Shown here piece after piece: positions 6,201-44,200 of a stretch of 64,000 bases of DNA (position 1 is its first letter; the number at the start of each line of letters is the position of its first letter). The notes beneath the pieces are model-generated. The model worked only from the letters and a program-made list of their open reading frames with translations, was not told where the DNA came from and made no database searches. The translations under genes were made by a program, and so were the position numbers. Origin of the DNA: Halichondria panicea (Eukaryota > Porifera > Demospongiae > Suberitida > Halichondriidae). The stretch covers positions 3,228,201-3,292,200 of the forward strand of contig NC_087379.1 in NCBI RefSeq assembly GCF_963675165.1, in the 5' to 3' direction.

Positions 6201-9200
6201 TAGTGAAAGGCATTGAAGATAGCATCCATGAAGTATACTTGTGTGTATCGTGTGGGTTCACAATTCACTCGCTCAGGAACCTTTTCGTTGGAGAATTTCC
6301 TTAAGAGAATGACAGCTACAGCTGGTTGAAAAGTCTTGAGAGACTCCTCATACATCCTCCATGGATTCTGTGTTTTTGTTATATTCAATTGTTTTAGTTG
6401 AACATCGTCGTCCATGAAAATATAGTGGATGTACTTTTCTTTCCTTTCCTTGGCTGCTTCGTAAAGCAAGTTTCTTCCAACAGTCCAGGTTATAGACTTA
6501 CTAGAGTTGAATAAGTATTGGACATGAGGCAATGACGTGTCAGCACACTTTGTTTTGTAACTGAGGATAATGACATCACACTGACATGCTTCAGAGTTAC
6601 CGATCACTTTGGGAGACTTTAAATAAGTTGGAATACAGTTTTCTGTTTGTGTTAGATAGAGAAAGCGAGTTGGTGCAATTTCAACAGTCATGACTGCGGT
6701 CAAAGTACGTCTTGGCAAAGGTCTTGGGGCCGTGATTTTTAAGCTTGGAAAATAACATAGCACTGTGATACTGCCAAGGAAAACAAATAATAATATCACC
6801 TTAGAAGTGAGTTGATTCATTGCCTATAGTTCCTTTTCCTGCTATCAACACGTTATTAGAAAACTGACAACAAATTGAACGCACGCAAAATGTTGCTTGC
6901 CTTTTCTCTAACTAAACTAGCTATAGCTTTTATATACCCACCACAACTGTTTACGTTATAATTATACATGCCTGAAGGATATGGGATGTGGTTAAGATAA
7001 TTATTTATATGATATCACTATAACCTGCAAGATGAGGGACATTGCATTTGATGATATTATAGGCGAATGGTTGAGCTAAAACAAATCTTTTGGCAACGTA
7101 AGGTGGTGGTTTGTGGTTGCTTGTAACAGCAAAAATCGTTCCAGTGGGCAAATCGCTTAGCGATGGTACACACTAACCGTTGTCAAAAGATCTGGAACTC
7201 AGTACAACATCAATGGATAGTTCACCTAACATTACGGTTTTAATTAACATAAGTGCACACACTGTACTCCATTATCTGTCTTAGTGATGCAGCTCACGCA
7301 AATTTGTCAGGCTAAGGTCTAATTTTTTCACACCTGGAATTGTCATTGTCTTCTACTACCAGCATGCATTTTCTAGAATAATAGGGACAGATTTGGTGCT
7401 ATGATTATATTAGCAACTGAGAATAATGGGCGTATTATAGGAATTAAGCTTGTTGCCTTTTGACCTCTGAGATCAGAAACGCAGTGCAAATAATAATTAT
7501 TATATACCATATTGCACTGTAGGAAAGCAAAACTGCATTGTACTACAGTGGACCCTCTTATAACGGACTCTCTAAATTGCGGATCCCTCTGTTATAGCGG
7601 ACAGCATACTACCAACTGCTTTACTATCTAACTAGTGTACTTGCAACCCCGAAAAGCGGACACTTCTTAACTCTGGACAACGGACGTCACACTTGCACGA
7701 AAGATACATTTAGTGCAAGAATTACCGGACGAAGGGTGTGGTTATAGATCTTCGATAAGAATGGCATCACCTACCTGTTGCTCCACAGAGTCTGAGTTTA
7801 CTTCTCCTTCAAGGATAAATGCCTATATCAAGTAATTTGGAACCTATATGCCAGTTGTTGGGGATGTTGCTGCTTGAAAGAGAATTCAGTAGTCTACTGA
7901 GACTGAGTAGACAGGTCTGCCAGTTGCAGTGTGGACTTGAAACAAGATGACATTGTTGGTCGTGCTCCTACTTTTTATTCTAAAATCTTAGCAAGAAAAC
8001 TGCTGTGACTATTAGCTAAGTATATTCTTGTCATGTGTGCATGCATAGTTCAGATTCAGTCTGCTGTAGCCCAATCCAGTCTCACTCGCTGTCATGCCAC
8101 TTTGCATTTACAATAATGTCAATTTGTGGTATTAATCTGTTCCCAAAGACCATGGCTACATGTATTCCAGTTCATCATATTTGTGTATTTGAAGTCATTA
8201 TTGTCTCATTAAACACATTCGGGGTAACGTAACTTTATATGGTATAACCTCCCAATAAAGGAAACCTCCGAATAGCGAACAAAACCTTCTGCACCAACTT
8301 GTCTGTTATTCGGAGGGTCCACTGTATTTGTAATTAATAGTATGCATGGTTAAGAGTGCAATATGGGATTAATAGCACAAATAACAAGCAATGGCAAGGT
8401 TGCATGAGGTAAGCCGAGTGCTTGCATGGCCTTGCCAGCCGTGCTTGTTATGAGTTTCAATTGTTACAGTTTTGAAACATGTTGGGTCCCTGAATTCTGG
8501 TCTAGTTTCTATACAACAAATGGTTTCTACGCAGCATATGCTGTTTCATATACACAGCATATGCTGTTTCATATGCAGCAAATGGTTTTCAAGACAACAA
8601 AGTAGTTTCAGTAGAACCGATGATCCAAAATCTCAGGCTTGGCAATTTTATCTAAAATGGACACAGGCATGTTTATATTCTGCACATGTGCAGACGCCCA
8701 CGTGCACTAAATTTACACTGCTGATTAAGTGGGTGGATTGAGGGCGTGGTTTATCCATTCGTTATCCAGCCTGCCTCTGGAACCAAGGTGTCTGAGGTTC
8801 TACGTACTACATGGAAATTAGACCACTCTACCACTCTACTCATTGCGATGTAATATAGACGCCCTTGCTAATACAGTTAGAGCTCTAGGTGTACGAGGTT
8901 CAGGGGTAGTTTAATCACAATTCACGGTTACAGGCCCTGACAAATTAAAACACTGCAGGTGCTGATGCATTGGTGGATGCATGTGTCAAAGCTACATAAC
9001 AAAAAGCTACTATAATTTATATATAGCTATTGTTATAATACCAGAAATTACCAGAAATACATGAAGGGGAGCTAGTAAGTATAACTATAAAAAGTTTTGT
9101 TATTTGAGTACGTCACAAACATTTTTAGTAATGCGTGTGGGTTGACATGACCATGATTATTTACAATCAGAAATTCTACGGTGTGCTCCGGCCACGTTGT

Positions 9201-25424: not shown

Positions 25425-25829
25425 ATGTCTGGACGTGGAAAAGGAGGCAAAGCTCGTGCCAAGGCCAAGACTCGATCTGCCCGTGCTGGTCTACAGTTCC
25501 CCGTTGGTCGTGTTCATCGGCTTCTCAGACAAGGTCACTACGCTGAGAGAATCGGAGCTGGTGCTCCAGTCTACCTAGCAGCAGTCATGGAATATCTGGC
25601 AGCTGAGATTCTGGAGTTGGCTGGCAATGCAGCTCGTGACAATAAGAAACAGCGTATTAATCCAAGGCATCTTCAACTAGCCATCAGAAATGATGAGGAA
25701 TTAAACAAGCTTCTTGCTGGTGTGACTATTGCACAGGGTGGTGTGCTTCCCAACATTCAAGCCATACTCCTGCCAAAGAAAAGTGGACACTCTGGAAAGA
25801 AGAGTGACTCTCAGAGCCAAGAATATTAA
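25425..25829 (+). CDS. H2AX: Histone H2A.X
   Basis: Core histone of the nucleosome: an intronless 134-residue frame with the full H2A fold, including [15 protein letters not shown], the acidic-patch region [19 protein letters not shown] and [20 protein letters not shown]. The C-terminus ends SQSQEY, matching the H2A.X consensus SQ(E/D)-hydrophobic, the site phosphorylated by PIKK kinases at DNA breaks (gamma-H2A.X). A replication-type 3' stem-loop follows 27 bases after the stop, so the transcript is probably non-polyadenylated and S-phase linked, though H2A.X genes in some animals make both forms. It is a lone copy here, not part of a histone cluster. Confidence 0.97.
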
Positions 25830-26645: not shown

Positions 26646-29600
26646 TTACTCATGTTCCTCTATCATTGCAGCAGGACCACATTCTGGGTCTCTCCACACA
26701 TAATCAAAAATCGGACCACATGTTTGCATGTGACCATCAGGTGCAGGAATTTCCATTTGCATCAGCCTTTTAGCCTGAATCTGCATAGCCTCCATAACAT
26801 ATATAGCTTCATCTAGTTCTTCGGGTTTTCCATTGAAAACAATTTGCAAAGAGTTTAGAAGAGAAAGGTACATGTTGTGGAATACCTTGGCTTGGTGGTA
26901 GACATGTGTATTCGGAGGAATGTTTTTAGATGCTGGATTATCACGCATGGGCCAAACACCTTCAGAGACAAATTCAATATCTTCGCCTTTGTAACTGTAT
27001 GTTTTATGATCTTCAGATGAATTCAAATGTTTCTTGCACGCAATTTCACCAAATTTATAAAAGTGTGCCAGCTCTTGTGTGCCAAGGTAGGTGGGATCTA
27101 ACTGATCAGTTCCTTCCCCTTGTTCAACTATCATGGCAATAGCTGCTTTGGCATCCTCAATACATTTCACCTGGTACAATTTACTCGAAGAATCGGACAT
27201 TTTCCACGGCCATTTCAATTGATTCATAAAATTATCAGTCTCTGGGTTAACAGGATAACCGAGCAAACGTTTCTCGTCCAAATCCTCCATACATTTTTCA
27301 ATTTTAGAGTAGAAGGTTCCAATTGTCAATGCATTAACTGTTTTTTCACCAACATGCATGTTACCGTCATACACAATTTTATCAGGGAATTCAATCATCA
27401 TAAATATATCTCGAATATGCTGTGGTGAGGCCTTGGCAAGACGCACTGTCAAATTGGGTAAAACGTCACCGGGCAAATTTGTTGGGAAGCATTTAGGTAT
27501 AAAACTCTCTTTTGGGTTTTCCATTTTCGGTTTTCCGCCAATAGAAATCAACAAATTCGCTGCTTGTGCCATGTGTAACATTTCCTGCATTACAACAGAA
27601 CGGATAATGCTGTAAACCTCCTGATTAAAGCCATCTTTGATAGAATACAGTGCAGTCATGTAGGGGGGAATCGTTGAAAATTCAAGAGCTATAGCCGTCT
27701 GGAGGGCAATGATCAAATCGTCTTTTGTCTCACATTTTTGCCACATCAATTCACTAGAGTCAAGTTTGGAAGCAGGTATTGTCAGAGATACAAATTCATC
27801 TACTACTTCAAGTACGTCACTACTAGGTAAGTTTTGATCTCTGACATGGGACAAAATGTTTGAGAAGTGGAGGGCAAGTTTAGATTCTGCCAGTCTATAT
27901 GCAAGCTTCTTTTTTTTTGAGCCGGTACCAGATTTTTGAGGGCTTGTGTCAGCATTATTTGAGTTAATGTTCATGTGAGGTTCCTCTTTGTCATTATACA
28001 AGAAATGAACGTCACAATAAGCTGGGGTTTCGAACAGTTTTCGGTCGATGTCTTCCCAGCTTCTAGGTAAATTAGGAGTTTTGAGCCATTCTAAGATCAT
28101 GTTTCGTTTTGAAGGAGACAAATCTCTAGTTACGGGCATATAACTCACATGCTCCTCAGGAAGATTCATAGCATTTAAAATTAACTTGACGTTGTGTGGC
28201 TTTGTTACATCATCATAGTCGCCTAGCCTTACAATACTGCTCATAACTGGATATAGATTCTCGTACTGCTTAAAAATCGGCTCTATATGCTTGTCCCAGA
28301 AATATGGCCTGACTTCAGTGAATGGGCTCCAAATCAAAAACATAAAGTAATTCCCCTCATTTTTTGGAGTACAAATATTTTTTGCATTTAGTTTCGAAAT
28401 AAAGTTATCTTGAAGAATACAATCGTGAGAGGAATATCTATACGAAAAGACTTGTCCATCCATTCTAATGCTTCCTCTTGGCCTTCCTACATCTCCAGCC
28501 TTAAACACAAATGTCGCTATCCCATTACTGTCAGTGGTAGCCGTTTTAGTATTTGAACCACCCAGATTAGATGTAGTATCTTTTCCATGGTAAGAAATAG
28601 CAGTTTCAGAGGTGCGACCATTAGGGCTAGTATCGTGAAGTTTTACCGTTCTACCGGGACGTTTCTCGCCAAAATAATTCATTTTCAGCCTGATGTCTGC
28701 AGTGTTGTGTTTCTCCATTCTATTAACAAAAATGTCCATAGGGCGAATCATGCAAGCGGTTTCTTCTAATAGTCTATATACACACGCATAACTATCATTA
28801 TCACTAGAAGGCGAAAATTGTGTTTCTCGGTGCAACAACAAAATTTTCTTATAATAACAGGACTCATAACTCTTTCCAATTTCAATTTCACCTTCAGTAG
28901 TAACAACAACAACTTTCGAGTGTGTTTGAATCAAGTCTATTTGTGTTTTGTCTAGCTTAAAATCAAAAATTCCTGCTTTTTTGTTGTACCATGTTTCATC
29001 TTGATATGGAACTTCACCAATTATCTTGAACTTTGTATCACTACCTTCAGTTTCGGTTATACCAAGATAGAGTTTGAATAATTTACAAATTTTGCCTTGT
29101 ACACCAATTGCAAAAGAATTGCTCATGTCAATGCTTATTGTAGACTTTTCCATATCAATATCAAAATAGGCACCATGCATCCAATCGCCAATAGTACGAC
29201 AGTCCTCATCCGTGTGGTTTAGTGGAGGATTATCGAGAAATTCCATAACACGGCTTTCAGGAAACTGCAAAGAGTCGTCTTTTTTCGATATACCAATGCT
29301 CCCAACAACGTTTCCATATGTAAACCAATTGTCACTAGGATTCTTGCTATAATTGAACAAGGTGAACCTGATTGAGAGTGCTGTACCCTCCTCTGTTAAT
29401 GCCTCTTGGAGTAATTCCAATGCCTTAGATCCTGGAAGTAAAGATTCAACTTTGGACCACGTCACATTCTCAATTCTGGAAACAACTCGAGTACCAATTG
29501 TTTGCTGGAAATACGCTTCAGATTTTGCCTGGCGGTCCCACCAATCACTGGCTACCACAGCTGGTTTAAAATCACCAATAAAGCAGTTGGGTTTCGGATT

Positions 29601-29978
29601 TAAGCTATCATAATTAATGCCGAGTTTCATTCCATGAATAACAGAACTCAATAACTGTTCATCGACATCGATATCCACCAATTTGGCAGGGGCAGTATTG
29701 GGATTGTTAACTAGCGGCAGGCCAATGAGGGAGTCATCTTCACTATCAACTTTTATATTATCAATGCCATATGCTACAGAAGTAACCTTGCAATCAACAA
29801 AACTCCACGTATTTGCGCCATTTTTATTGAAACTGCCACGACCATCCAAAAGCATGTCTTCCTTGCTGATACTAGCAAACAAGAAATTGAGTCGTTCATT
29901 GTTATTCGTGGCTACGTCAGGGTTAAATTTTCCTTCAAAGTTAATTCGTGGAAATTGTAGATAAGAGCTTGTGGCCAA
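26646..29978 (-). CDS. VioB-like protein (iminophenyl-pyruvate dimer synthase type), copy A
   Basis: The open frame covers 1110 residues and resembles full-length bacterial VioB/RebD/StaD, which couple two indole-pyruvate imines in violacein and indolocarbazole synthesis. The N-terminus YLQFPRINFEGKF matches the family's FPR-x-F-x-G start. A ferritin-like iminophenyl-pyruvate dimer synthase domain covers about residues 745-960, with ALEFSTIPPYMTALYSI near 762 and VVMQEMLHMAQAANLL near 797 (Glu/His metal-ligand candidates). The frame's first codon, at 29978, is TTG, not ATG. It is preceded by TTCCTTCCAG, a good 3' splice site, so a 5' exon upstream is missing from my model; end 29978 is the frame edge. 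Function in an animal is unknown; bacterial ancestry is inferred. Confidence 0.85.
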   Translation of the reverse strand: MATSSYLQFPRINFEGKFNPDVATNNNERLNFLFASISKEDMLLDGRGSFNKNGANTWSFVDCKVTSVAYGIDNIKVDSEDDSLIGLPLVNNPNTAPAKLVDIDVDEQLLSSVIHGMKLGINYDSLNPKPNCFIGDFKPAVVASDWWDRQAKSEAYFQQTIGTRVVSRIENVTWSKVESLLPGSKALELLQEALTEEGTALSIRFTLFNYSKNPSDNWFTYGNVVGSIGISKKDDSLQFPESRVMEFLDNPPLNHTDEDCRTIGDWMHGAYFDIDMEKSTISIDMSNSFAIGVQGKICKLFKLYLGITETEGSDTKFKIIGEVPYQDETWYNKKAGIFDFKLDKTQIDLIQTHSKVVVVTTEGEIEIGKSYESCYYKKILLLHRETQFSPSSDNDSYACVYRLLEETACMIRPMDIFVNRMEKHNTADIRLKMNYFGEKRPGRTVKLHDTSPNGRTSETAISYHGKDTTSNLGGSNTKTATTDSNGIATFVFKAGDVGRPRGSIRMDGQVFSYRYSSHDCILQDNFISKLNAKNICTPKNEGNYFMFLIWSPFTEVRPYFWDKHIEPIFKQYENLYPVMSSIVRLGDYDDVTKPHNVKLILNAMNLPEEHVSYMPVTRDLSPSKRNMILEWLKTPNLPRSWEDIDRKLFETPAYCDVHFLYNDKEEPHMNINSNNADTSPQKSGTGSKKKKLAYRLAESKLALHFSNILSHVRDQNLPSSDVLEVVDEFVSLTIPASKLDSSELMWQKCETKDDLIIALQTAIALEFSTIPPYMTALYSIKDGFNQEVYSIIRSVVMQEMLHMAQAANLLISIGGKPKMENPKESFIPKCFPTNLPGDVLPNLTVRLAKASPQHIRDIFMMIEFPDKIVYDGNMHVGEKTVNALTIGTFYSKIEKCMEDLDEKRLLGYPVNPETDNFMNQLKWPWKMSDSSSKLYQVKCIEDAKAAIAMIVEQGEGTDQLDPTYLGTQELAHFYKFGEIACKKHLNSSEDHKTYSYKGEDIEFVSEGVWPMRDNPASKNIPPNTHVYHQAKVFHNMYLSLLNSLQIVFNGKPEELDEAIYVMEAMQIQAKRLMQMEIPAPDGHMQTCGPIFDYVWRDPECGPAAMIEEHE

Positions 29979-32180
29979 ACTGACCCTGGAAGGAAATTTT
30001 TAATAATAATGATTAATTCCATGCACTTTTAGTTATTAGCTACAATGTACACTGAATCTGAATTGAAGTACAAAGAAAAAGTACTATTACCTAGTTTAGG
30101 GAAAAATATTAATAGTAAAAGAAAATTTTGTAAATCACGGCACCACTGTGTCATATTTACTGATTTGCTCCAAACCTCAGAGTGAGCTGCAAAGCACAGT
30201 GGAGTTTATAAGATTAGAGGGAGTTCAGTTGATAATGCTGCACAAACATGACCCCGCTGTGGCTACAGCTGCATACATAAAGGTGGTCACCACTCACCAG
30301 CGTAAATATAAGGCTTGAACCACGTACAGATTATACTGATAGTGTGTTCCCATCTTTATTATTCCCATCTTTATTATTATACCAAAATGAAGTTATTGTG
30401 CAATGGAGTGACCCAAAATATATGAGTTATGTTTTTGCATTTCCTTTTGATCCATCCTCGTAAGTCACAATTGTTACAACCCAAACTAGTGACGTTGCCA
30501 AGCACCTGCAGTGCAATGCCGGCGTGAGAAAAAGACGTTTATCAGCAAAAAGGTCCAAATTAAATGGCTGCTGCTTTTTAAAAGGTGAAACTTTGCAGCT
30601 CTTTTCTCACTGATGTAGCTGCTATAGTGCAAGGCTAACTCGTAAGTGGTAAAGAACAGACGTTGCCAAGTATGATTCTGAAGAGACTGCAACTTCAATC
30701 TAAGTAGAAGTAACGCATATGCTTTAGTTATAAGAAGTGGCTAGAAACCTAAAGCCTTAGGGCTGTTAGTGTTGCTATAGAGTTTCTGGTACAGCAAGAT
30801 TGTCTAGTTTTGATTAGCATGAAGCTATACTTGTAACCAGGAAGGTCAGACACAGGGTATACACCTGGCAAACCCGTGCAAAAAGAGTACAAAGTACAAT
30901 AGATTATACAGGCAGTTTTACAACAATAATACGAAGGTGAAGCACATATAGAATGGTTTTAGTAATACTCACTACACGCACAGTACTTAGTACTTGTGTG
31001 CATTAACTGAAAAATTAAGGCCACAAAGCAATGGCGCTAGATCTAGGAAAAACGTTCAAATATTGCATAAATTATTTAGAGGGTCTTCTTAAAATTACAG
31101 CAGCATTAATTTGTCAATTAATATTTTAACTGGACTAATATTTCTAGACCATATATACAAGTATATTTGTCACTGGAAAAATGGTTGAACAAAATAATAG
31201 TCTGGGAACCAATATTCAAAAAATGTTGGTCCGGGGACTGAAAAATAATATGGTTCACCCCTGAAAATATCGGTCTGCTAAATATATGAAAGCACCACAG
31301 GTGCTGATGCCTCGGTGGAGTCACCAAACATGAAGCTACTAGATCTAGCTACAGATACACAAACACACTACCGTATACCTCGCTTGCGCATGCGCACACT
31401 GAGGCGTACATGAATATTTGTGATTGCACAAGATCTATATAGTAGTAATGAAAGAGGTGTATGTATATATGGCAAGCTAGGGTCCTTTCCACACCATTAT
31501 ATATAATATACATGCACAGGCAGCTACAAGCTGCACAGGCAATTAGCTACAAGCTCATCATGTAATTATTGATCTGAATGAATGTGCAATGGAGCATGTC
31601 GATACTTGATAAGTAATTCCTTGGTTATGAAATTAAGCATTTGTAGAAGTGCTGCCTGATTATTTTATACTGGAAAAGTACGGGCGAGTGGCCAAAAGCA
31701 AGAGCTGTTGCGTGCGCTTGCAACTGTAGATCTCTAGGAGTACAAGGGCGTACCAATACTTTCAGCATACAAAAATTGAGTGCAGTACCCAGATCAAATT
31801 TTCGTGACATATCTACTGGTCATGGAAAACGTCATGTTGCACACTGCATGAATACTGATGCATGTGCAGCAGTCTATAATTAACTATAGATTTATATAGG
31901 TCTATGCTGCATGCAGTACTGTACTGACCCAATCAATTTGCTCACTATGCTAGCAGAAGAAGCAGTGATATGTCACCTTGCATGATAGCTCCAGCAGTCA
32001 CTAGTCCAGCAGTCTAAACAGTGAGTCTGAAATACTTGTTTGCATGAGCATGCAGATCATTAAATTATGAGATCTAATTATAATTAACTCCACCCCATAA
32101 TTATGATCAACCCTCTTCAATTTGGAGCATAGAGACATGCATGTATTCTCTTCTGCTGTGTATAATTATATAAGAGACCT
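29979..32180. other. Region upstream of VioB-like copy A
   Basis: It should hold the promoter and first exon of copy A, which I could not place. Blocks conserved with unit B are 30160-30225 (CAAAGCACAGTGGAGTT), 31680-31760 (GAGTGGCCAAAAGCAAGAGC) and 31925-32060 (ATGCTAGCAGAAGAAGCA). There is also a decayed arm of the 3009-type element near 30600-30790, a GGTGCTGATGCCTCGGTGGA repeat at 31298 and a palindrome at 31377. Confidence 0.6.
31285..31328. repeat. Interspersed repeat tail (GGTGCTGATGCCTCGG family)
   Basis: The core GAAAGCACCACAGGTGCTGA followed by TGCCTCGGTGGAG occurs here. Variants are at about 1747-1790, 8948-8990 and, inverted, 50296-50338. A weaker one may lie near 290. The parent element is not recognisable. 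Confidence 0.6.
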
Positions 32181-32204
32181 GTAAATAATAATACATGAAG
32201 TTAC

Positions 32205-32750
32205 TGTTGCTCAGAATCTAAAAGAGGGTCAAGAAGAACTTTTTAAAGCTAGCAAAACTAGACTATATTCAATGACAGCAATATCGCGTACAGATACTTG
32301 ACATGTACAAGTACCTGTAAAATACACGGCACAATATACTAAAATTTCAAAGATTCAAATTGACTTACTTGTTACTGAAAAGTCGTACTGTTGAATGTTG
32401 GGCGATTCACTCAGTATTTCACAGAGTTCCAGCACTGAAGGAGACTCAGTGTCGAACATGTCATGAGAAGAGAGGGAGGAGTGGCTGGAAGCAGACGTTG
32501 TCCATGAAGGTATCGAAGAAGCTCCAGTGCGATAATCATACACGTCTAGCTGATGCATGATTGGAAGCTCCTCCAGATTCATCTGTGAGCCCTCCGGTTG
32601 TCCTTAGGGCACTCATGTTACTCAGACAGCTCAAAGAACATGCACTGGTGGACTGTGTTGATGTTTGAGCGTGATCTGAGAGGAATTGAGACCAAGTGGC
32701 AGCATCATCGATTTAATTGGTTCAAATCTGCTCTTGAAATGTTAAGTCAT
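32205..32750 (-). pseudogene. Truncated CAMTA 3' fragment from segmental duplication
   Basis: This matches the end of the CAMTA large exon (39041-39440) and part of its first IQ exon. It keeps the MNLEELPIMHQLDVYDYRTG peptide, but small indels (near 32600 and 32710) break the frame. The donor region and the SPGQ segment are altered, and the downstream IQ exons and everything upstream are absent. Confidence 0.85.
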
Positions 32751-32869
32751 TAGTTCTAGAAGCCATCAATGCTGAAGACTTATTTTATAGCAACATTGTA
32801 TGCTGGTTTTGTGATAATGCAGTGAGTAATTTAGTATTTTGCAACGTCTGTGCAAACAGCTGTATTAAA

Positions 32870-33010
32870 GGCCTAAATGATTTGAATACTCTTTTCTAAA
32901 AGCCACCATGGCACTTGACTCACACCAATGAAAGCCACCACTTAAAACCACACCTGACTCACATCATTTTATTCTGTATGCATAAAATAATGTTGACCTA
33001 GGGGTAGATT
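32870..33010. pseudogene. Relic of the H2A.X 3' end
   Basis: CTAAATGATTTGAA is followed by a decayed version of the histone stem-loop (only CTTTTCTAAAAGCCACCA is kept; the left GGCTTT arm is lost). No H2A coding sequence precedes it. It marks the left edge of duplication unit B. Confidence 0.75.
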
Positions 33011-33302
33011 GCAGTTTAAAAGGAATTCATACCTTGGTACATTAATTTTAGATCCACTATTATAATTATTTCGGAGGCTTATATGTACGAAAATATTATC
33101 CATGAAGTAACTAAATATTGCTCAACCACGAATGTTTTGCCCCCCGAAAATTACCAGCTATACGGTATACAAATTTCACCAAGTGTCACAAAATATATTT
33201 TTCTTGTTCTATTAACAAGACACTGATAATTAATTTTGAGTGGCGCTGTAATTAGCAGTATTGCCGAAAATAATCTAGAAATTTAATCCGTGCAAAAAGT
33301 TG

Positions 33303-36300
33303 CTATGCATGTTCCTTTATTGTTGCAGCAGGTCCACATTCTGGGTCTCTCCACACATAATCGAAAATCGGACCACATGTTTGCATGTGACCATCAGGTG
33401 CAGGAATTTTCATTTGCATGAGCCTTTTAGCCTGAATCTGCATAGCCTCCATAACATATATAGCTTCATATAGTTCTTCGGGTTTTCCATTGAAAACTAT
33501 TTGCAAAGAGTTGAGAAGAGAAAGGTACATGTTGTGGAATACCTTGGCTTGATGGTAGACATGTGTATTCGGAGGAATGTTTTTAGATGCTGGATTATCA
33601 CGCATGGGCCAAACACCTTCAGAGACAAACTCAATATCTTCACCTTTGTAACTGTATGTTTTATGATCTTCAGATGAATTCAAATGTTTCTTGCACGCAA
33701 TTTCACCAAATTTATAAAAGTGTGCCAGCTCTTGTGTGCCAAGGTAGGTGGGATCTAACTGATCAGTTCCTTCCCCTTGTTCAATTATCATGGCAATAGC
33801 TGCTTTGGCATCCTCAATACTCTTCACCTGGTACAATTTACTCGTAGGATCAGACATTTTCCACGGCCATTTCAACTGATTCTTAAAATTATCAGTCTCT
33901 GGGTTAACAGGATAACCGAGCAAACGTTTCTCGTCCAAATCTTCCATACATTCTTCAATTTTAGAGTAGAAGGTTCCAATTGTCAATGCATTAGCTGTTT
34001 TTTCACCAACATGCATGTTGCCGTCATACACAATTTTATCAGGGAATTCAATCATCATAAATATATCTCGAATATGCTGTGGTGAGGCCTTGGCAAGACG
34101 CACTGTCAAATTGGGTAAAACGTCACCAGGCAAATTTGTTGGGAAGCATTTAGGTATAAAACTCTCCTTTGGGTTTTCCATTTTCGGTTTTCCGCCAATA
34201 GAAATCAACAAATTCGCTGCTTGTGCCATGTGTAACATTTCCTGCATTACAACAGAACGGATAATGCTGTAAGCCTCCTGATTAAAGCCATCTTTGATAG
34301 AATACAGTGCAGTCATGTAGGGGGGAATCGTTGAAAATTCAAGAGCTATAGCCATCTGGAGGGCAACGATCAAATCGTCTTTTGTCTCACATTTTTGCCA
34401 CATCAATTCACTAGAGTCAAGTTTGGAAGCAGGTATTGTTCCTTCAAATTTATCTACTACTTCAAGTACGTCACTACTAGGTAAGTTCTGATCTTTGGCA
34501 AGGGACAAAATGTTTGAGAATTGGAGGGCAAGTTTAGATTCTGCCAGTCTATATGCAAGCTTCTTTTTTTTTGAGCCGGTACCAGATTTTTGGGGGCTTG
34601 TGTCAGCATTGTTCGAGTCAATTTTCGTGTGAGGTTCCTCTTTGTCATTATACAAGAAATGAACGTCACAATAAGCTGGGGTTTCAAACAGTTTTCGGTC
34701 GATGTCTTCCCAGCTTCTAGGTAAATTAGGGGTTTGGAGCCATTCTAAGATCATGTTTCGTTTTGAAGGAGACAAATCTCTAGTTACGGGCATATAACTC
34801 ACATGCTCCTCAGGAAGATTCATAGCATTTAAAATTAACTTGACGTTGTGTGGCTTTGTCACATCATCATAGTCGCCTAGCCGTACAATACTGCTCATAG
34901 CTGGGTATAGATTCTCGTACTGCTTAAAAATCGGCTCTATGTGTTTGTCCCAGAAATATGGCCTGACTTCAGTGAACGGGCTCCAAATCAAAAACACAAA
35001 GTAATTTCCCTCATTTTTTGGAGTACAAATATTTTTTGCATTCTGTTTTGAAATAAAGTTATCTTGAAGAATACAATCGTGAGAGGAATATCTATACGAA
35101 AAAATCTGTCCATCCATTCTAATGCTTCCTCTTGGCTCTCCTACATCTCCAGCCTTAAACACAAATGTCGCTATCCCATTACCGTCAGTGGTAGCCGTTT
35201 TAGTATTTGAACCACCCAGATCAATCGCATTAGATGTAGTATCTTTTCCATGGTAAGAAATAGCAGTTTCAGAGGTGCGACCATTAGGGCTAGTATCGTG
35301 AAGTTTTATTGTTCTACCGGGACGTTTCTCGCCAAAATAATTCATTTTCAGCTTGATGTCTGCAGTGTTGTGTTTCTCCATTCTATTAACAAAAATGTCC
35401 ATAGGGCGAATCATGCAAGCGGTTTCTTCTAATAGTCTATACACACACGCACAACTATCATTATCACTAGACGGTGAAAATTGTGTTTCTCGGTGCAACA
35501 AAATTTTCTTATAATAACAGGACTCATAACTCTTTCCAATTTCAATTTCACCTTCAGTAGTAACAACAACAACTTTCGAGTGTGTTTGAATCAAGTCTAT
35601 TTGTGTTTTGTCTAGCTTAAAATCAAAAATTCCTGCATTTTTGTTGTACCATGTTTCATCTTGATATGGAACTTCACCAATTATCTTGAACTTTGTATCA
35701 GTTTCGGTTATACCAAGATAAATTTTGAATAATTTACAAATTTCGCCTTGTACACTAATTGCAAAAGAATTGCTCATGTCAATACTTATCATAGACTTTT
35801 CAATATCAATATCAAAATAGGCACCATGCATCCAATCGCCAATAGTACGACAGTCCTCATCTGTGTGGTTTAGTGGAGGATTGTCGAGAAATTCCATAAC
35901 GCGGCTTTCAGGAAACTGCAAAGATTCGTCTTTTTTCGACACACCAATGCTCCCAATAACGTTTCCATATAGATACCTATAATTGAACAAGGTGAACCTG
36001 ATTGAGAGTGCTGTACCATCCTCTGTTAATGCCTCTTGGAGCGTTTCCAATGCCTTAGATCCGGGAAGTGAAGATTTAACTTTGGGCCATGTCACATTCT
36101 CAATTCTGGAAACGATTCGGGTACCAATTGTTTGCTGGAAATACACTTCAGATTTTGCCTGGCGCTCCCACCAATCACTGGCTACTACAGCTGGTTTAAA
36201 ATCACCAATAAAGGAGTTGGGTTTTGGATTAAAGCGATCATAGTTAATGCCGAGTTTCATTCCATGAATAACAGAACTCAATAACTGTTCATCGACATCG

Positions 36301-36608
36301 ATGTCCACCAATTTGGCAGGGGCAGTATTGGGATTGTTAACTAGCGACAGGCCAATGAGGGGGTCATCTTCATTACTAACTTTTATATCATCAATGCCAT
36401 ATGCTACAGAAGTAACCTTGCAATCAACAAAACTCCACGTATTTGTACCATGTTGATTGTAAGTGGTACGACCATTCAAGAGCATGTCTTCCTTGCTAAT
36501 ACTTGCAAACAAGAAATTGAGTCGTTCGTTGTTATTTGTGGCTACATCAGTGTGAAATTTTCCTTCAAAGTTAATTCGTGGAAATTCTAGATAAGAGCTT
36601 GTGGCCAA
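33303..36608 (-). CDS. VioB-like protein (iminophenyl-pyruvate dimer synthase type), copy B
   Basis: A 1101-residue open frame nearly identical to copy A along its length. The same FPRINFEGKF start, IALEFSTIPPYMTALYSI and MQEMLHMAQAANLLISIG motifs are intact. Differences are scattered substitutions and in-frame indels: a shorter loop at FNYRYLYGNV, TETDTKFK, an extra AID before LGGSN, and EGTIPAS for VSLTIPAS. No stop or frameshift has entered either copy, which suggests both are under selection or the duplication is young. As in copy A the frame opens with TTG; the preceding acceptor is TTCCTTCTAG, with the AG kept despite a C-to-T change. The first exon is not located. Confidence 0.85.
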   Translation of the reverse strand: MATSSYLEFPRINFEGKFHTDVATNNNERLNFLFASISKEDMLLNGRTTYNQHGTNTWSFVDCKVTSVAYGIDDIKVSNEDDPLIGLSLVNNPNTAPAKLVDIDVDEQLLSSVIHGMKLGINYDRFNPKPNSFIGDFKPAVVASDWWERQAKSEVYFQQTIGTRIVSRIENVTWPKVKSSLPGSKALETLQEALTEDGTALSIRFTLFNYRYLYGNVIGSIGVSKKDESLQFPESRVMEFLDNPPLNHTDEDCRTIGDWMHGAYFDIDIEKSMISIDMSNSFAISVQGEICKLFKIYLGITETDTKFKIIGEVPYQDETWYNKNAGIFDFKLDKTQIDLIQTHSKVVVVTTEGEIEIGKSYESCYYKKILLHRETQFSPSSDNDSCACVYRLLEETACMIRPMDIFVNRMEKHNTADIKLKMNYFGEKRPGRTIKLHDTSPNGRTSETAISYHGKDTTSNAIDLGGSNTKTATTDGNGIATFVFKAGDVGEPRGSIRMDGQIFSYRYSSHDCILQDNFISKQNAKNICTPKNEGNYFVFLIWSPFTEVRPYFWDKHIEPIFKQYENLYPAMSSIVRLGDYDDVTKPHNVKLILNAMNLPEEHVSYMPVTRDLSPSKRNMILEWLQTPNLPRSWEDIDRKLFETPAYCDVHFLYNDKEEPHTKIDSNNADTSPQKSGTGSKKKKLAYRLAESKLALQFSNILSLAKDQNLPSSDVLEVVDKFEGTIPASKLDSSELMWQKCETKDDLIVALQMAIALEFSTIPPYMTALYSIKDGFNQEAYSIIRSVVMQEMLHMAQAANLLISIGGKPKMENPKESFIPKCFPTNLPGDVLPNLTVRLAKASPQHIRDIFMMIEFPDKIVYDGNMHVGEKTANALTIGTFYSKIEECMEDLDEKRLLGYPVNPETDNFKNQLKWPWKMSDPTSKLYQVKSIEDAKAAIAMIIEQGEGTDQLDPTYLGTQELAHFYKFGEIACKKHLNSSEDHKTYSYKGEDIEFVSEGVWPMRDNPASKNIPPNTHVYHQAKVFHNMYLSLLNSLQIVFNGKPEELYEAIYVMEAMQIQAKRLMQMKIPAPDGHMQTCGPIFDYVWRDPECGPAATIKEHA

Positions 36609-38224
36609 ACTGACCCTAGAAGGAAATTTTTGATATGATTAAATCCACAATATTATTTTCAATACTTGACACAAACATAAATTAACTACAACCATTAAAG
36701 CAATAAGCTTTAGCCTTTTTAGTTATTAGCTACACTGAATCTGAGATGAAGTACAGAGCAAGTAATTGAAGCTATTACCAATCAAAACTGCTTGTTAACA
36801 GTAAATCACAACACCACTGTCATATCTCAAGTATTTTTTGTGTTTTACTATTTGTCCTCAGCCTCAGAGTGAGTTGCAAAGCACAGTGGAGTTCATAAGA
36901 CTGGGTTGTAGTATACTATACAGACATGACCCTGTTGTGACCTAGCTAGCTGGCATAAACTGCCTTGCAAACTTCCAGTTCCATGCAATTAATTCCATAT
37001 GGCTATGTCCAGCTTGCAGGCACACACGTTTTATATTAGTCATAGATCTCTATTTTCACCCTTCTACCACCCTTTCTACCCTCACGCGACTTCGCGATAC
37101 AGGCTCTACTTTTTCATAACTCTACCTCTATTTCTTTCTTTATTCCTCCAATTAATACTGTCTTATTGAATAATTGCGACAATTAAAGAACAGAAAAAGC
37201 AGAGCTTGTGTAGAGGCTAGTACAGTACTTGTGTGCATTATGACACATACCACAACATTTTATGGGCAAAAAGTTCAAATATTGCATATTCCGAAATCTC
37301 GATTATCCCGATGAAAGATTCGGTAAAATTTATATACTCGCACATGCATTAAGTGTCCATGTGGTTGAACGCTTTTTGCGTTGCTGATTAGCAGAAGCAG
37401 CTAAACGTTTCAGCTTATAGCCTTTAATAGTAATAGTTGCTATATACCTTGTTCTATCCACTGATGCATTATGTCCAAGACGTACTAGCTAGTACACTTG
37501 GAAGAGCTCTATAGACATCGTTTTCTGATTTTGAATGCAGAGGCTACTTAAAGTAGTTATGGGCGTGGCTCATTGATGAGTCATTCTGGTATCCGAAATA
37601 ATCGAGGCTCAACTGTACTAGATTTAGAACTGTCCAAGTGAGTGGCCAAAAGCAAGAGCTGTGGCTGCGTGCATGCGAACTGTAGATATCTAGGACCACT
37701 TTTTCAAGGGCGAACCAGTAAACATTTTTTCCAGGAAATAGTACCTGTATCTGTACCAAATTTTGTCATGGAAAACATGTGTGTGCAAGCATAACAATTA
37801 ATTATGACCTATGGTACTGGTATACTGTACTGACCCATTTTTTCAATTTGCTCACCATGCTAGCAGAAGAAGCAATGATCTGTCACCTTGCATGACAGCT
37901 TCTGCAGCTATTGTCAGTCTAAAACAACGAGTCTGAAATACTTGTTTTGAGCATGCAGATCAGATGACCATGTGGTAGACATTGTATAATTAGCTCCACC
38001 CCCATGGGGCATAGACTGAAATAATTATAATACATATTGTACTCTTGCAGTCAGACTCACATAGTCATCTAATTAAGACTAGTTTCTGCTGTCTAATTAC
38101 CCATGCATTCATGCACCTGTCATTAAAATTTGTTTGTGAACATGAATTCAATCAAAACAATTAGAATGATGTATCTCAATTAGATGAACCTATACACACA
38201 AAAATCAAGCTACCTATCTACTAT
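36609..38224. other. Intergenic: VioB-like copy B upstream region to CAMTA stop
   Basis: It contains blocks conserved with unit A: 36860-36900, 37636-37700 and 37850-37970. One may hold the first exon or promoter. I see no other gene or transposon end; 38041-38224 is unremarkable AT-rich sequence. Confidence 0.6.
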
Positions 38225-41200
38225 CTAGCTGGTAGTGTTTGGTGGGTAGTTTCCCTTTTTGTTTCTGTGATATCTGTACATCTGCTGAACAAACAGTACG
38301 GCTCTTTTAAGGTCTCTACTTCTTCGGTAATGCCTATACTGTTGCTGTATTTTCCTAGCAGCATGATCCTGTTGCTCCTTTGCCTACAATGATAGTATCT
38401 CATGTCATGTGTGTGAGGGGTGTGTGTGGGTGTAGAGTGTGTGAGGAATGTGTGTAGTTCGCTGTGGTCACACATATACTACGGTCAACTAGACTACAAT
38501 GGAAACCCCTCTAAAAATTTATGATCGTGAAAACAGGGCAATTGCGACGCAAAGGAAAGGCACTCAACTAAAAAACTCAACAATGGCCACTTATGTATAT
38601 AAAATATTCCCCATAATAATGGCATAATCATGTTCTGTTAAACGAGTCCCTTATAAAGAGTTCAAATTTATGTGTCAGTACGTGTTAATCATGCAGGCAT
38701 TTACTTACTTCGCGATATTGTTTGTAGTACTTTTCGATCATCAGTGCAGCTCTTTTTTGCCGACTCCTAACCTGCCTTCTGTCCTGTCAGTCAAAGACAC
38801 CACAAATGAATTATGCATGTAGGAGCATTAAACCTGCAAAGATTTTTTACCTTGTATTTTCGGAATGCACCCTGAATAGTTTTGGCAGCATGAAACAGTT
38901 GCTGTTGCTCCGAATCTGAAAGAGGGTCAAGAAGAACTTTTAAAAGTTATGAAAACTATATTCAACAACGACAATATCGTGTACTAGTACATGTAAAATA
39001 CACAGCTATTTAAAATGTATCTAATGCTAAATTGACTCACCTGTTAGTGTAAGGTGTGAAAAGTCGTACTGTTGAACGTTGGGCGATTCACTCAGCATTT
39101 CACAGAGTTCCAGCACTGAAGGAGACCCAGTGTCAAACATGTCATGAGCAGAGAGGGAGGAGTGGCTGGAAGCAGACGTTTGCCCGGGGGACGAAGGTAT
39201 CGAAGAAGCTCCAGTGCGATAATCATACACGTCTAGCTGATGCATGATCGGAAGCTCCTCCAGATTCATTTGTGAGCCCTCTGGTATGTCCTGTAGGGCA
39301 CTCATGTTACTCAAACAGCTCGAAGAACGTGCACTGGTGGACTGTGTTGAGGTTTGAGCGTGATCTGAAAGGAATTGAGACCAAGTGGCAGCATCATCAA
39401 TATTTGATTGGTTCAAATCGTGCTCTTGAAATGTTAAGTCAGGCAGAGAAAGGTGTGTTTGGCCTCCATCTTGTGAGGATAAGTCAGATGACGTGTTTGA
39501 AAATCTAAGTGAGCCAGCTGAGTTCGCAGCAAGTGCGTAATTATTTGCGCCAGTTGACTGACACGCTTGCTGAACATCCAATGTGGGATTCATCAATACA
39601 CCTACTGATGACGTGTCAGAGACTAAAACTTGAGGTTGTGCTTCAGCATCATTGCTGGTAATTACAGTATTCATAAGTGATTCTAAGTCTTGATACTCTT
39701 GAGCGGGTGCAAAAGAGCCGGGAAATTGAGAGAATGAGCTTGAAGTCGCATCACTGGAAGCATTTGGCAAGGAATACAAAGAGCCTGAGTGAAAGGAGCT
39801 TTGATTGCCGAGAATATCTGTTAATAAGTGATTTTCGGGTTGCTGGAACATGTCGTGTATCGTATTGGGAGCAGTAGAACTATTTGGGGCATTAAAATTA
39901 TATGAGTGATGATTTGGTGCTGACAAATGTGGTAGTGGCTGAAACGAAGTGTGTGTATTCATATCAAAGTTCATGGGAAGATTCATTGAGGTGGAAGATT
40001 GATGGTGTTCTGGCATTGTTGTTGTTGTAGAATTAGACCACATGTTACTGCTTGAGGTGCTTGAATCCGTTCCAGCTTGAAAGCTGCTAGAATCTGCTCC
40101 AGTTTGAAAGCTGTTAGAAATGTGATGTGTGATGGGTTCACCCAAAGGTGATGCCAAACTGTTCATAAGCTGAGTGAGGGGAGACATTGGAGGCTCAATA
40201 TGGGAGGAGCCATTGAGAAGATTGCTGGATTGCATCGGCTCTGGTGACAACCGAAGCAATTGTTGGACACTTTCATCATCTAGTTCAATATCGAGAAGAT
40301 CACTTTCTCCTGAATCGTTATGGAGATCAGTCATTGTTGACGCTGAAGAATGTTGCACTGTAGTTTGTTGAGATACAAGTGACGCTGTGATATTGGAAAG
40401 AGAATGTGCAGGAACAGGGATGTCTTGTTGGACGTTTGATAAATCCATTTCTGAATTGCTAAGGCTCACAGTGTTACTGTGCCCAGTAAAATTGCTCATG
40501 TTTAATTCATCAACGTCGGAACTCGCACTAGATTGTGACATTTGTCGCTCAAGGTCGGGAGTTACTCCTTCAGTTGATAGACGAAGTGCAAAGTCTGAAA
40601 ACTTTTCAGGGTCGTAATCGGGTGTTTTTAAGATACTCGGTTGTGAAATACCCGTCGCAGTTGAAACAACTAAATTTCCATTCCCTGCCTGCTTTGTAAA
40701 AGGTACCATCTTCGAAAAAATACCCATAATTTTGTCTCCACTGACAGCTTTTTCTTTTCCATTTATGATTCGCTTAGATTTACTGCCTGTTTTCTGAGGG
40801 GTCTTCAATTTCATTTGAATTGACTGTTTAATCGAGGGAAGTGGTAGCTTTGTGCCAGGTGGGAACATAGCCGCTGCAGAGGATTCAGTAGGTGGGGGGA
40901 TTGTCAAAAAACAGCTCATTGCACCATTTTGGGCTTGACACACAAGAAAATGTGGTGCTTTATAAATTGGGTCTTGTGGGTTGATCGAGTTACTTGTTGA
41001 AAGTTCCATGTTTGTTGATTTAGAAGTGCTTTGAAGTTCAGTAATGGGTGAAGTGTCTACTTTCGAGCTGCTTGCCTTTTTGGAGCGAGTGTCAAGGTAC
41101 ATATCGAATGGTAGCCCTTCGTTGTTGGAAACTAATGTTTCTTCAAGAGTAGCAGCTTGTTCGAGATTGTTGTTGAGGATTAGTGAGAGCTGAGAGAGTA

Positions 41201-44200
41201 TGATCTCTGTCGTCGTGTCAGAATCCACCATGTGAATGAGCGAGCATACATTGCAGTCACTAACAGTCAACATACCCCAGTCAGATGGAGTGTCTGCTAG
41301 CTCCAGGCCTTCTTGTTCCTGAGTGGGATAGGGAATAAGGGAATGAAGTAATTATAAGCAGGCAACACAACTCCATTTTGTGATATTGGTTGCTTTATAG
41401 GAGCATACAGGTATACTATATATAACACAGCAAGTAAGCGATACCTACATTGTATCAGTGGTCACATACATGTACAGTCTATGCTTCCTATTAATGGTTT
41501 CAGCAAAACTGTTATTATACAATGTACTACTCAATCAATTGCCTCATTTAAAAAGTTCGTGAATCAACATGCTCTAGAGCATACGAGATATATGTAGAGA
41601 ACAGTTGCAATACCCATTTATAGAAGCTAGAGAAAATCAAACAGAAATATCCCCTTAGCAACAGTCAATACAGAAAGCATACAAAACAATGTAAACAAAA
41701 TAAATGTGCAATCCCTATGCACCAAATCAATGCATAACAGTGAATGAGCACTTACTTCGATGGACTTTCTAAACACATAGTTGCTAGAAGTCACCTCTAG
41801 ATAGTGCACCATGATGATGTTGGGGTTCTGTTAGGTGCATGCAGGAATGTGTGATGCTAGAGCATATGCTGAAAACAATACATGTAGCTATAGACAGGTG
41901 TACATAGCATACGTACCCAAGACTACAGCTGGCAAACTTAAGGTGAAACGTCAATCAGAATCTCCACTTTCAATGTACACTGTACATGTATATGCAGTGT
42001 TAGTCTCTTATAAGCAGGTGTTATGAGAAGAAAGACTGCTACTGACTGTTCGCACAGAGTACATATACATGTGCATACATGTAGGCATAGCTTGAGCGTA
42101 AACAGAAAACATTGACTTCATTCTAGGTTTGTTTAGCAGCGTTTCAACTCTAGTGCTGCAGCTTCCAAATAATAGTCATCGAACTTTCTTGCAGCATATT
42201 TTGTTAGGAGTACATTGTACACAGTATTAGGGGTAGAGCCTAAATCGAACTGTAAAATGTACGTTCAATGAAGTTCCAGCTCCAGATTACTGATCTATCT
42301 TTCTTCTCTCTGACTGTGTGCGCCGGATATCAGTGGGTGGCTAGAGCAAGCGTAAGCAGTCGATACCAGGCCCTCGGGTAACCAATAAGGACGAAAGTTG
42401 GTATAGGGATGAGGTAACATAAGTTCCGCTAACTCTTGATCAATTCAACCCCAGATCATAAAGTCACATACAGATTCACTGTAGCTCAAATGGGGCCTAC
42501 AACTGTCAAGTAACTAGTGTTGCAAGCGCACGCTTGCTAATGCCTCTCGCCATGTTTTTGCTTTCGTTTAAAAGTATTAGAGAGTGTTATAGAAGAGGTA
42601 AATAATTTGCAATGTAAGCAGTCTAAAAAGAGTTCAATCACAGAATTCAATCGCCATTGTTTTGCTTTCGTCAAAAACTATTAGAAGAGGTATAATTACG
42701 TTGATTGCAATTGTTGACAGAATTGAATTCCACACAGTCATTATAGGATCTAGGAGAGGAGCTGAATGGAAACAGATGGCTTGATGAATAATCAATCTTC
42801 AACGATACTGAAGCAACTGCATGTTATTTAAATGGCCTGTAGCCAAACAGTGGGAGCAAACCTTTGTTAAAGGGACAGAGTAAGAGAGATTTAAGCACTG
42901 ACAGTATAGTATATAAACAAGCAGAAAGTGTATATCTATCTATAACTGAGAAGAAAAGACTTGTGTACATGTATCTATTGTTAATAGACTTGTGTACATG
43001 CATCTACTGTTATCTATTCTATATGGTATTGTGGCTTACCGGTATACCAGGACTCAAGAAAAAGAAGTACCGTAAGTTGATTCTGCCAGTGCTGGATTCT
43101 CTAACATGTGGGGATGAGCGCGCATGCGCATTACATACACAGGGATAATTAAAGGATGTGTCCAAAGACATCAAGTTCACAATGGCTACTATATACATGT
43201 ATATATAGCTAGCTGCTTTAACAAATCTTTTCTGACTTATGTAGCTAACAAAAAGCTAGCGCTTTAGTGGAAGGCTAACTTATATGTTGAATAGAAAGTT
43301 TGTGCGAACAGATGATGCTATGAAAGATTCTGAAGAGACTGAAACAGCCTTCAATGTGAAAACTAACCATAACTCGAGAAAGAAGCTTTAGTTTGCTAAT
43401 CCACGAATCAAAATCCAGAGAACGTGGCTAGAAGCCTATAGAAGCTGTTAGTTTTCGTCGCATTGCAACCGTTGAGCAGTTACAGCTGGAATACACACAC
43501 ACAGACACACACACACACACAGTCAGCTTTACCGTATCCCTCGTGCGGCTACGCCTCGAGGTATAATAATATATTTGAACTCACATTAATAAGCCAGTAT
43601 GTTCTCCTATGCAGGTCAGGGTTAGAGGAAGAGTGGGCATAGCAACCATACAATAGCTGTAAATGTGTGTGTGTGTGTGTGTGTCCATAGCAGTCAATAC
43701 AGAATCAATACAAGCGAGCCTGCTAGAGGAAACTATTCCTATTCCACAGCGATAGTACAGTTTTCACACCCACTTTCAATGGATTGATTTCAAGAATGAA
43801 GACATCTAGAGTACAGTATTTTTATTGACTGTCTACCTCACCTGATGCTGTCCAACCTTGAGCCTCATTCTGTCCTCCCTCACACAGGAGGAGGAAGCCT
43901 TTCTCTTCTTCCAGTCGTAGCCATCGTTGCGATACTTCTTTGTCTGCAGGGAGCATTAAGAATGATTGAGCTGCATCGGATTAAATTGTCAGACCTAAGG
44001 AAATTTTTAGTGGAGATGAACAATGTGAAATTTAATATTGTGAAAGTCACCCTTAGGCTGAACTCGATGAATACAGAATTACATGTATAACACGTGCAGC
44101 TCCCCAAGGATATCTCACTTAACACCTTTACTAAATGATCGTTGTCAGTAATTATTGCCCACATGTATGAAAACTGATGCTGAATAGGTCAATCAATTAA

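What the first reader, a model, noticed from the sequence alone, without database searches (positions are those of the whole stretch)
26646..36608. Duplicated VioB-like (violacein/indolocarbazole-type dimer synthase) genes in an animal genome
Seen: two intact >1100-residue frames with the FPRINFEGKF start and ferritin-like IALEFSTIPPY / EMLHM motifs of the VioB/RebD/StaD group, flanked by clear animal genes (H2A.X, CAMTA). Known: these enzymes are mostly bacterial and act on amino-acid-derived imines in pigment and alkaloid synthesis. Inference: ancient transfer from bacteria, domesticated and duplicated, perhaps making an indole or phenyl natural product or acting as a repurposed ferritin-like oxidase. 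No VioA-like oxidase partner is in the window.
Basis: partly seen in the sequence, partly recalled or inferred. Interest (0 to 1): 0.87.

Follow-up and report, generated by a model that had tools for sequence, protein, structure and literature searches.

The report
Secreted bacterial-type iron enzymes in animal
An animal genome carries a family of eight large genes whose only relatives found here are bacterial enzymes distantly related to those that make pigments and alkaloids, and the animal has fitted the family with export signals, so it probably runs an iron-based chemical reaction in its secretory pathway or outside its cells.

Summary
Both frames are real and intact; eight full-length copies were found in the genome, not two. 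They are not VioB. Each has a large N-terminal domain and a C-terminal ferritin-like domain (PF12902) and matches, full length, a bacterial two-gene enzyme (fused in Streptomyces). In 10 of 19 bacterial loci examined that enzyme lies beside ebo genes, known for metabolite export. Trees separate animal plus ebo-type proteins from VioB/RebD/StaD at full support; whether the animal clade is inside or beside the bacterial one is unresolved. Six predicted di-iron ligands are kept throughout. An upstream 38-44-base exon encoding a signal peptide precedes each copy, but in the left-hand window copy (w1) its junction codon reads TAG. Twelve cysteine positions are animal-specific among these rows. The enzyme is therefore probably secreted. 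Recent copies show purifying selection. Best reading: a bacterial gene domesticated into a secreted di-iron oxidase family acting on an unknown small molecule. Bisindole synthesis is not excluded but not supported; horizontal transfer is likely but not shown.

The parts
33303..36615 (-). copy w2, exon 2: 1103 aa after the split junction codon (VSLATSSYLEFPRINF... to stop), uninterrupted
37856..37893 (-). copy w2, exon 1 (38 bases, predicted): MQGDRSLLLLLAW, signal peptide; a 1240-base intron GTGAGC...TTCTAG joins it in frame to exon 2
33699..34361 (-). w2 ferritin-like domain PF12902 (ORF residues 750-970); predicted ligands E759, E792, H795, E856, E948, H965 (counted from V of VSLATSS)
26646..29985 (-). 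copy w1, exon 2: 1112 aa, uninterrupted, 93% identical to w2
31946..31983 (-). copy w1, exon 1 counterpart: MQGDISLLLLLA then TAG where w2 has the junction TGG; as joined, translation stops at codon 13
27042..27704 (-). w1 ferritin-like domain PF12902 (ORF residues 759-979)
32199..32712 (-). partial second copy of sequence found at 38897-38958 and 39057-39401, presumed CAMTA 3' region, carried along in the tandem duplication
   Evidence: assignment to CAMTA by position
43839..43946 (-). CG-1 exon of the flanking CAMTA gene
25425..25829 (+). flanking histone H2A.X gene (C-terminus SQEY)

Best explanation
The two frames are the main exons of two members of an eight-gene animal family of secreted enzymes. 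Each protein has a signal peptide encoded by its own short exon, a large N-terminal domain of about 700 residues, and a C-terminal ferritin-like helical domain with a predicted di-iron site (4 Glu, 2 His). The closest relatives found are bacterial 'ebo-type' enzymes: two adjacent genes, or one fused gene in Streptomyces, in about half of the loci beside ebo export genes. VioB/RebD/StaD, which couple two amino-acid-derived imines, form a separate, more distant group. Most likely an animal ancestor took up a bacterial gene, gained a signal-peptide exon and disulphide cysteines, and multiplied it. The most likely mechanism is that, after export, the di-iron site activates O2 and oxidises, perhaps couples, a small and probably aromatic amino-acid-derived molecule for defence or pigment. 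Shown: intact frames, copy number, homology, ligand conservation, fold of the C-terminal domain (predicted model), and the family-wide pattern of signal exon and cysteines at sequence level. Inferred: splicing, iron binding, disulphides, O2 chemistry, substrate, direction and donor of transfer. w2 is probably functional; w1's signal exon carries a stop, so its output is in doubt although its main exon shows no extra decay.
For: Eight full-length uninterrupted copies. Acceptor of the same phase before the PRINF motif in 8 of 8. A hydrophobic exon 1 is visible in 8 of 8, with a stop in w1: a fixed filter finds exactly one in 6 of 8 upstream regions, misses C6 by its hydropathy threshold and w1 by its TAG; shuffled regions gave 0.02-0.13 hits each. 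Twelve alignment columns are Cys in at least 6 of 8 animal copies and at most 1 of 14 ebo-type rows. The six ligand columns are identical in 22 of 22 animal plus ebo-type rows and 3 of 3 VioB/RebD/StaD rows. The C-terminal model (mean pLDDT 78, pTM 0.83) matches 3hl1, a solved relative also found by sequence, at Z 26.2 over 264 residues. Full-length bacterial matches; ebo genes beside 10 of 19 loci. Trees: animal clade 100/100, split from VioB/RebD/StaD 100/100. dN/dS 0.25-0.33 in five pairs of recent copies.
Against: No expression, metal, activity or product data. The N-terminal half has no solved relative by sequence and the full-length model is poor (pLDDT 52). Exon 1 is predicted, not seen in a transcript; for C1 it is not backed by similarity to another copy; w1's exon 1 has a stop. 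Cysteine number alone is not diagnostic (15-21 in animal copies, 2-10 in ebo-type rows, but 10-14 in the three synthases) and N-glycosylation motifs are not enriched (3-7 against 0-9). Nine of 19 bacterial loci show no ebo genes. EboE and LodA models found nothing in this genome (gaps and withheld stretches mean this does not show absence). The animal clade may lie beside rather than inside the bacterial set (support 40/12) and the program warns of long branches; other eukaryotes could not be searched, so transfer is not demonstrated.
Confidence: 0.6

Rival explanations
1. True VioB/RebD/StaD-type dimer synthase: the animal itself couples two indole- or phenyl-pyruvate imines into a bisindole-like pigment or alkaloid, fed by a flavin amino-acid oxidase.
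For: Full-length distant homology, including the MPxxRDLS region and all six ligands. The genome has 40 PF01593 amino-oxidase matches (exon by exon), many of them long open frames; five of the seven frames read begin with a hydrophobic, signal-like stretch. One ebo-type locus has a LodA-like amino-acid-oxidase gene nearby.
Against: The trees separate the groups at 100/100. The insertion shared by VioB, RebD and StaD after helix 1 is absent. VioB model scores at most 29 bits against 1250 in five animal copies tested. A signal peptide is predicted. A VioA/RebO/StaO relative was found beside 0 of 19 ebo-type loci tested (15, L070-L073). The two oxidases compared with solved structures are nearest monoamine oxidase and plant polyamine oxidase.
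Confidence: 0.12
2. Secreted ferroxidase or iron-binding protein with no small-molecule product; the di-iron site serves iron handling or innate immunity.
For: The C-terminal fold also matches bacterioferritin and Dps at Z 10-11, a level that helical bundles can reach without kinship; the ligands are kept.
Against: Many full-length relatives sit in metabolite contexts: ebo clusters and, in Streptomyces, P450, aminotransferase-methyltransferase and glycosyltransferase genes. The N-terminal domain is co-conserved.
Confidence: 0.15
3. Old, vertically inherited eukaryotic family rather than a transferred bacterial gene.
For: The animal clade can be drawn as sister to all ebo-type bacteria (support 40/12). 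PF12902 genes are reported in Agaricomycete fungi near lodA/lodB (PMC4417212, passages), and PF12902 domains are named among Schistosoma vesicle proteins (PMC7563238, one passage; possibly ordinary ferritins, not checked). The animal copies are diverged.
Against: Patchy, rare bacterial distribution with no other eukaryote to compare. The single large exon behind a short signal exon suggests a late-added start.
Confidence: 0.2
4. Bacterial contamination or symbiont sequence in the assembly.
For: Only bacterial relatives found in the collections searched.
Against: Predicted introns and signal exons, base composition like the window (0.39 against 0.40), duplication together with part of a neighbouring animal gene, eight copies on five contigs of 6.5-18 Mb, the window pair between H2A.X and CAMTA; Wnt matches show the genome is animal.
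Confidence: 0.01

Closest known systems
ebo-type VioB-like pair (name given here; Chromobacterium, Mycetohabitans, Aureibacter, Azospirillum, Gloeothece, Caulobacter split; Streptomyces fused)
   Same: Full-length collinear homology, 26-38% identity; TIPPYL-type helix 1; no insertion after helix 1; same six ligands.
   Different: Animal proteins are fused, carry a predicted signal-peptide exon and 12 extra conserved cysteines, occur in eight copies, and no EboE was detected in the genome.
VioB / RebD / StaD (iminophenyl-pyruvate or chromopyrrolate synthases)
   Same: Same two-part layout; N-terminal and ferritin-like motifs and ligands align.
   Different: Separate clade at 100/100; they share an insertion and an LQY motif after helix 1 and sit beside an amino-acid oxidase gene.
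ebo/EDB cluster
   Same: Lies beside bacterial relatives. In Nostoc it is reported to move the scytonemin monomer to the periplasm, and a nematode-repelling EDB cluster of Pseudomonas fluorescens contains it (PMC6282210, passages).
   Different: Only EboE was searched in this genome, without a match. The main texts of the two ebo papers searched hold no 'ferritin' or 'VioB'.
3hl1, Caulobacter CC_0557, ferritin-like protein
   Same: Same C-terminal fold, Z 26.2 over 264 residues; also the best sequence match.
   Different: 317-residue chain without the N-terminal domain; function not known to me.

Membership tests
VioB (TIGR04492) | model score at or above 1250 bits | tested here: not met
   29.2 and 18.8 bits for the window proteins, 16-20 for three other copies; a true VioB from C. 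subtsugae scores 1702
VioB/RebD/StaD synthases | branches inside the VioB/RebD/StaD clade | tested here: not met
   separated at 100/100 in both trees; only three members of that group were in the trees
VioB/RebD/StaD synthases | insertion after ferritin-like helix 1 | tested here: not met
   present in 3 of 3 synthases, absent in 8 of 8 animal and 14 of 14 ebo-type rows
VioB/RebD/StaD synthases | amino-acid oxidase partner gene | tested here: inconclusive
   none among the window frames of 120 aa or more scanned; 40 PF01593 matches elsewhere in the genome, only two compared with solved structures
VioB/RebD/StaD synthases | couples two imines; haem in the protein (recalled for RebD) | not testable with these tools
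   no activity or cofactor data
PF12902 ferritin-like | score over the gathering cut-off, and fold | tested here: met
   176 and 178 bits against 22.3; model matches 3hl1
ebo-type VioB-like family (defined here) | full-length collinear N-terminal domain plus ferritin-like domain without the insertion | tested here: met
ebo-type VioB-like family (defined here) | animal clade nested within the bacterial members | tested here: inconclusive
   in an unresolved fork among them in the 25-row tree, sister at 40/12 in the 29-row tree
ebo-type VioB-like family (defined here) | ebo genes in the same genome | tested here: inconclusive
   EboE model finds nothing; the other five not searched; only 10 of 19 bacterial loci have ebo genes nearby

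The most novel reading that the evidence does not exclude
The animal makes an extracellular aromatic-dimer (bisindole-like) pigment or repellent with its own host-encoded enzyme family, taken from bacteria and re-routed to the secretory pathway; the signal peptide replaces the bacterial ebo export system as the way to bring the reaction outside the cell.
Probability: 0.15. Interest if true: 0.88.

Novelty: new variant of a known kind. Interest (0 to 1): 0.64.

Why it matters
Animal alkaloids, and those of sponges in particular, are often credited to symbionts (general knowledge). A multiplied, apparently secreted family of a bacterial biosynthetic type in the animal's own chromosomes is a directly testable exception. 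It also links, in bacteria, a VioB-like enzyme pair to the ebo cluster and gives that cluster a candidate chemistry.

Tried and rejected
VioB membership: rejected on model score, tree and insertion. Contamination: rejected. Ebo and LodA partners in the genome: the EboE and LodA_N models found nothing, which does not show absence. An L-amino-acid oxidase partner: 40 PF01593 matches; six stretches holding seven frames were read and two frames compared with solved structures; none shown to be one. Phages: no tblastn match; viral contigs: no relative among stretches holding one of two short patterns. Donor: not resolved. Samples of genomes with a match at E 0.001, the centre genome included: 3 of 398 Pseudomonadota (2 strong), 2 of 396 Actinomycetota (1 strong), 26 of 394 Streptomycetaceae (6 strong, 20 weak and partial), 2 of 385 Alphaproteobacteria (1 strong). 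Species name: a genome-note search listed no assembly of 131.5 Mb; 'sponge' remains a guess. w1 as a decayed pseudogene: its main exon has fewer derived changes than w2's (11 against 18), so decay of the body is not seen. Literature: the listings showed no paper on VioB-like genes in animals; the main texts of PMC4784904 and PMC13342648 hold no 'ferritin' or 'VioB', and PMC7563238 names PF12902 among Schistosoma vesicle proteins. Supplements could not be read and most subscription papers are not held. The C-terminal fold search says nothing about the N-terminal half.

Rows dropped before counts: C. haemolyticum L008 (near copy of L010) left out of the trees but counted in the 19 loci; plasmid hits H2, H3 and H5 (of eight full-length ones) not opened and in neither; G134 (three partial matches, fetched as L051, not analysed further), the 20 weak Streptomycetaceae genomes and C-terminal-only relatives (such as L015-L020 and L026) left out of the full-length trees. 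The StrepBGC_L073 row went in with an untrimmed start. L052 was fetched and not analysed apart from the Ebo search.
Full report
Observation. The two frames exist as described: 26646-29978 and 33303-36608, minus strand, 1110 and 1101 aa, each with a PF12902 ferritin-like domain at E about 1e-51. Frames of this length in a 64 kb window where the next longest is 748 aa are not chance, and they are 93% identical to each other. The VioB model gives only 29 and 19 bits, against a cut-off of 1250. The window lies in a 131.46 Mb, 39-contig genome. That genome has ten Wnt matches, about four genes by position, so it is an animal; that it is a sponge is an inference I could not test.

Copy number and gene structure. 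Searching the whole genome with the first protein or with PF12902 gives eight full-length uninterrupted copies: two here (C3), one on C1, one on C6, two on C11 about 445 kb apart, and two in tandem on C14 (lower bounds). Identity ranges from 44 to 93%. In all eight the long frame is entered at an AG|G acceptor of the same phase, 34 bases before the PRINF codons. Upstream, each copy has a short exon starting with ATG and encoding a hydrophobic peptide whose last codon is split by the intron: MQGDRSLLLLLAW (w2), MHKFQWVQLLVLLW (C1), MKTSTHWLCLFFFW (C6), MKVLYLSCCLYFW and MKVFYLSCCLCLW (C11), MKTSTPWLYLFIIW and MKTSTHWWLCLFICW (C14), and MQGDISLLLLLA-stop in w1. Except for C1, these exons fall in islands of similarity between recent copies. 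A fixed filter for such an exon finds exactly one in 6 of 8 upstream regions, with 0.02 to 0.13 hits per shuffled region; it misses C6 on its hydropathy threshold and w1 because of the stop. In w1 the junction codon reads TAG where w2 has TGG, so the predicted join ends at codon 13. Its main exon nevertheless shows no excess of changes (11 derived against 18 in w2), so w1 is a very recent loss, a start-exon switch or an assembly matter. dN/dS in five pairs of recent copies is 0.25-0.33. The unit duplicated in the window, about 6.66 kb, includes sequence from the presumed 3' part of the neighbouring CAMTA gene.

Relatives. The one scan of bacterial genomes allowed gave 14 loci, eight of them full length, in Chromobacterium, Streptomyces and Caulobacter; plasmids added eight full-length records in Mycetohabitans, Aureibacter, Azospirillum and Gloeothece, of which five were opened. 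Except in Streptomyces the protein is split into two adjacent genes, an N-terminal protein of about 590-675 aa and a ferritin-like protein of about 350-420 aa. Ebo genes lie beside 10 of the 19 bacterial loci examined: six each in Chromobacterium L007, L008, L009, L010 and L013, six annotated in Aureibacter and Mycetohabitans, at least three in Streptomyces L011 and L012, two in Gloeothece. None was seen at L014, L023, L024, L050, L070-L073 and the 7.3-kb contig L074. These 19 were chosen by similarity, not at random. A second Streptomyces kind (L070-L073) lies in what looks like a natural-product setting: of nine neighbouring or nearby frames scanned, P450 matches came from L070 and L072, aminotransferase-methyltransferase fusions from L071 and L072, a glycosyltransferase from L070 and GH95-like proteins from L070 and L072; L073's neighbours were not scanned. 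S. cinerochromogenes also has a LodA-like oxidase gene upstream. Strong matches are rare: 2 of 398 Pseudomonadota, 1 of 396 Actinomycetota, 6 of 394 Streptomycetaceae and 1 of 385 Alphaproteobacteria genomes, centre genomes included; with weak matches the counts are 3, 2, 26 and 2.

Not VioB. The C. subtsugae genome that holds ebo-type pair L013 also holds a true VioB (1702 bits) beside VioA; RebD-like and StaD-like proteins were fetched beside their oxidase genes (names given by me from the neighbourhood). In trees of 25 and 29 rows the three synthases split from animal plus ebo-type rows at 100/100, and the animal clade is 100/100. The tree program warns of long branches and uneven composition, and the place of the animal clade is open: an unresolved fork among the bacteria in the first tree, beside them at 40/12 in the second. 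The synthases share an insertion after helix 1 that animal and ebo-type rows lack. No VioA, RebO or StaO relative lies beside 15 ebo-type loci tested, where the three positive controls hit, nor beside L070-L073.

Metal site and secretion. Six positions that fit a di-iron site (E759, E792, H795, E856, E948, H965, counted from V of VSLATSS in w2) are identical in all 22 animal and ebo-type rows and in the three synthases. The assignment to iron is from general knowledge of ferritin-like proteins. A model of the C-terminal domain alone (pLDDT 78) matches 3hl1 at Z 26.2; matches to bacterioferritins and Dps at Z 10-11 are at a level that helical bundles can reach by chance. Twelve columns are Cys in at least six of eight animal copies and in at most one of 14 bacterial rows; but the synthases too have 10-14 Cys in all, and N-glycosylation motifs are not enriched in the animal copies. 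Together with the signal exon this suggests a disulphide-bonded secreted protein. Bacterial members show no strongly hydrophobic start; the highest value is a modest 1.50 in one Azospirillum protein.

How it works, most likely. After secretion the di-iron site would activate O2 to oxidise, possibly couple, a small molecule, by analogy with VioB/RebD/StaD and with the metabolite setting of several bacterial relatives. The substrate is unknown; aromatic amino-acid derivatives are the best guess. Ebo in Nostoc is reported to move the scytonemin monomer to the periplasm, and an ebo-containing cluster to make P. fluorescens unpalatable to nematodes (PMC6282210, passages), so an exported, possibly defensive product is plausible for the bacterial ancestors. 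No EboE or LodA match was found in this genome. Amino-oxidase matches are many (40, exon by exon), but the two compared with solved structures look like monoamine and polyamine oxidases.

Origin. Transfer from bacteria before the eight-copy radiation is the simplest reading, but other eukaryotes could not be searched. Fungal PF12902 genes near lodA/lodB are in print (PMC4417212, passages), and PF12902 domains are named among Schistosoma vesicle proteins (PMC7563238, one passage), which may be ordinary ferritins. The listings named under Tried and rejected showed no report of VioB-like genes in animals; the library lacks most subscription papers and no supplements could be read.

Noticed in passing
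L007, L008, L009, L010, L013, L021, L022 (bacterial loci): A VioB-like gene pair stands directly upstream of ebo clusters of six genes in Chromobacterium, Mycetohabitans and Aureibacter; the main texts of the two ebo papers searched hold no 'ferritin' or 'VioB'.
   Followed up: partly
L070, L071, L072 (Streptomyces): A fused VioB-like protein of about 915 aa lies near P450, aminotransferase-methyltransferase, glycosyltransferase and GH95-like genes: an apparent natural-product cluster.
   Followed up: partly
L069:3574-7011 (-): LodA-like oxidase with a haem-oxygenase-like domain (PF17990, PF18417, PF14518) lies upstream of and divergent from the VioB-like gene in S. cinerochromogenes.
   Followed up: no
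G000:C16:5192884-5200007 and G000:C7:3694772-3722328: Clusters of amino-oxidase frames (PF01593), most uninterrupted; the one tested from C16 begins with a signal-like stretch and is nearest plant polyamine oxidase.
   Followed up: partly
window 58240-59295 (-): Galactosyltransferase (PF01762) frame of 351 aa.
   Followed up: no
window 5831-6820 (-): Frame of 329 aa with no Pfam match at E 0.001.
   Followed up: no
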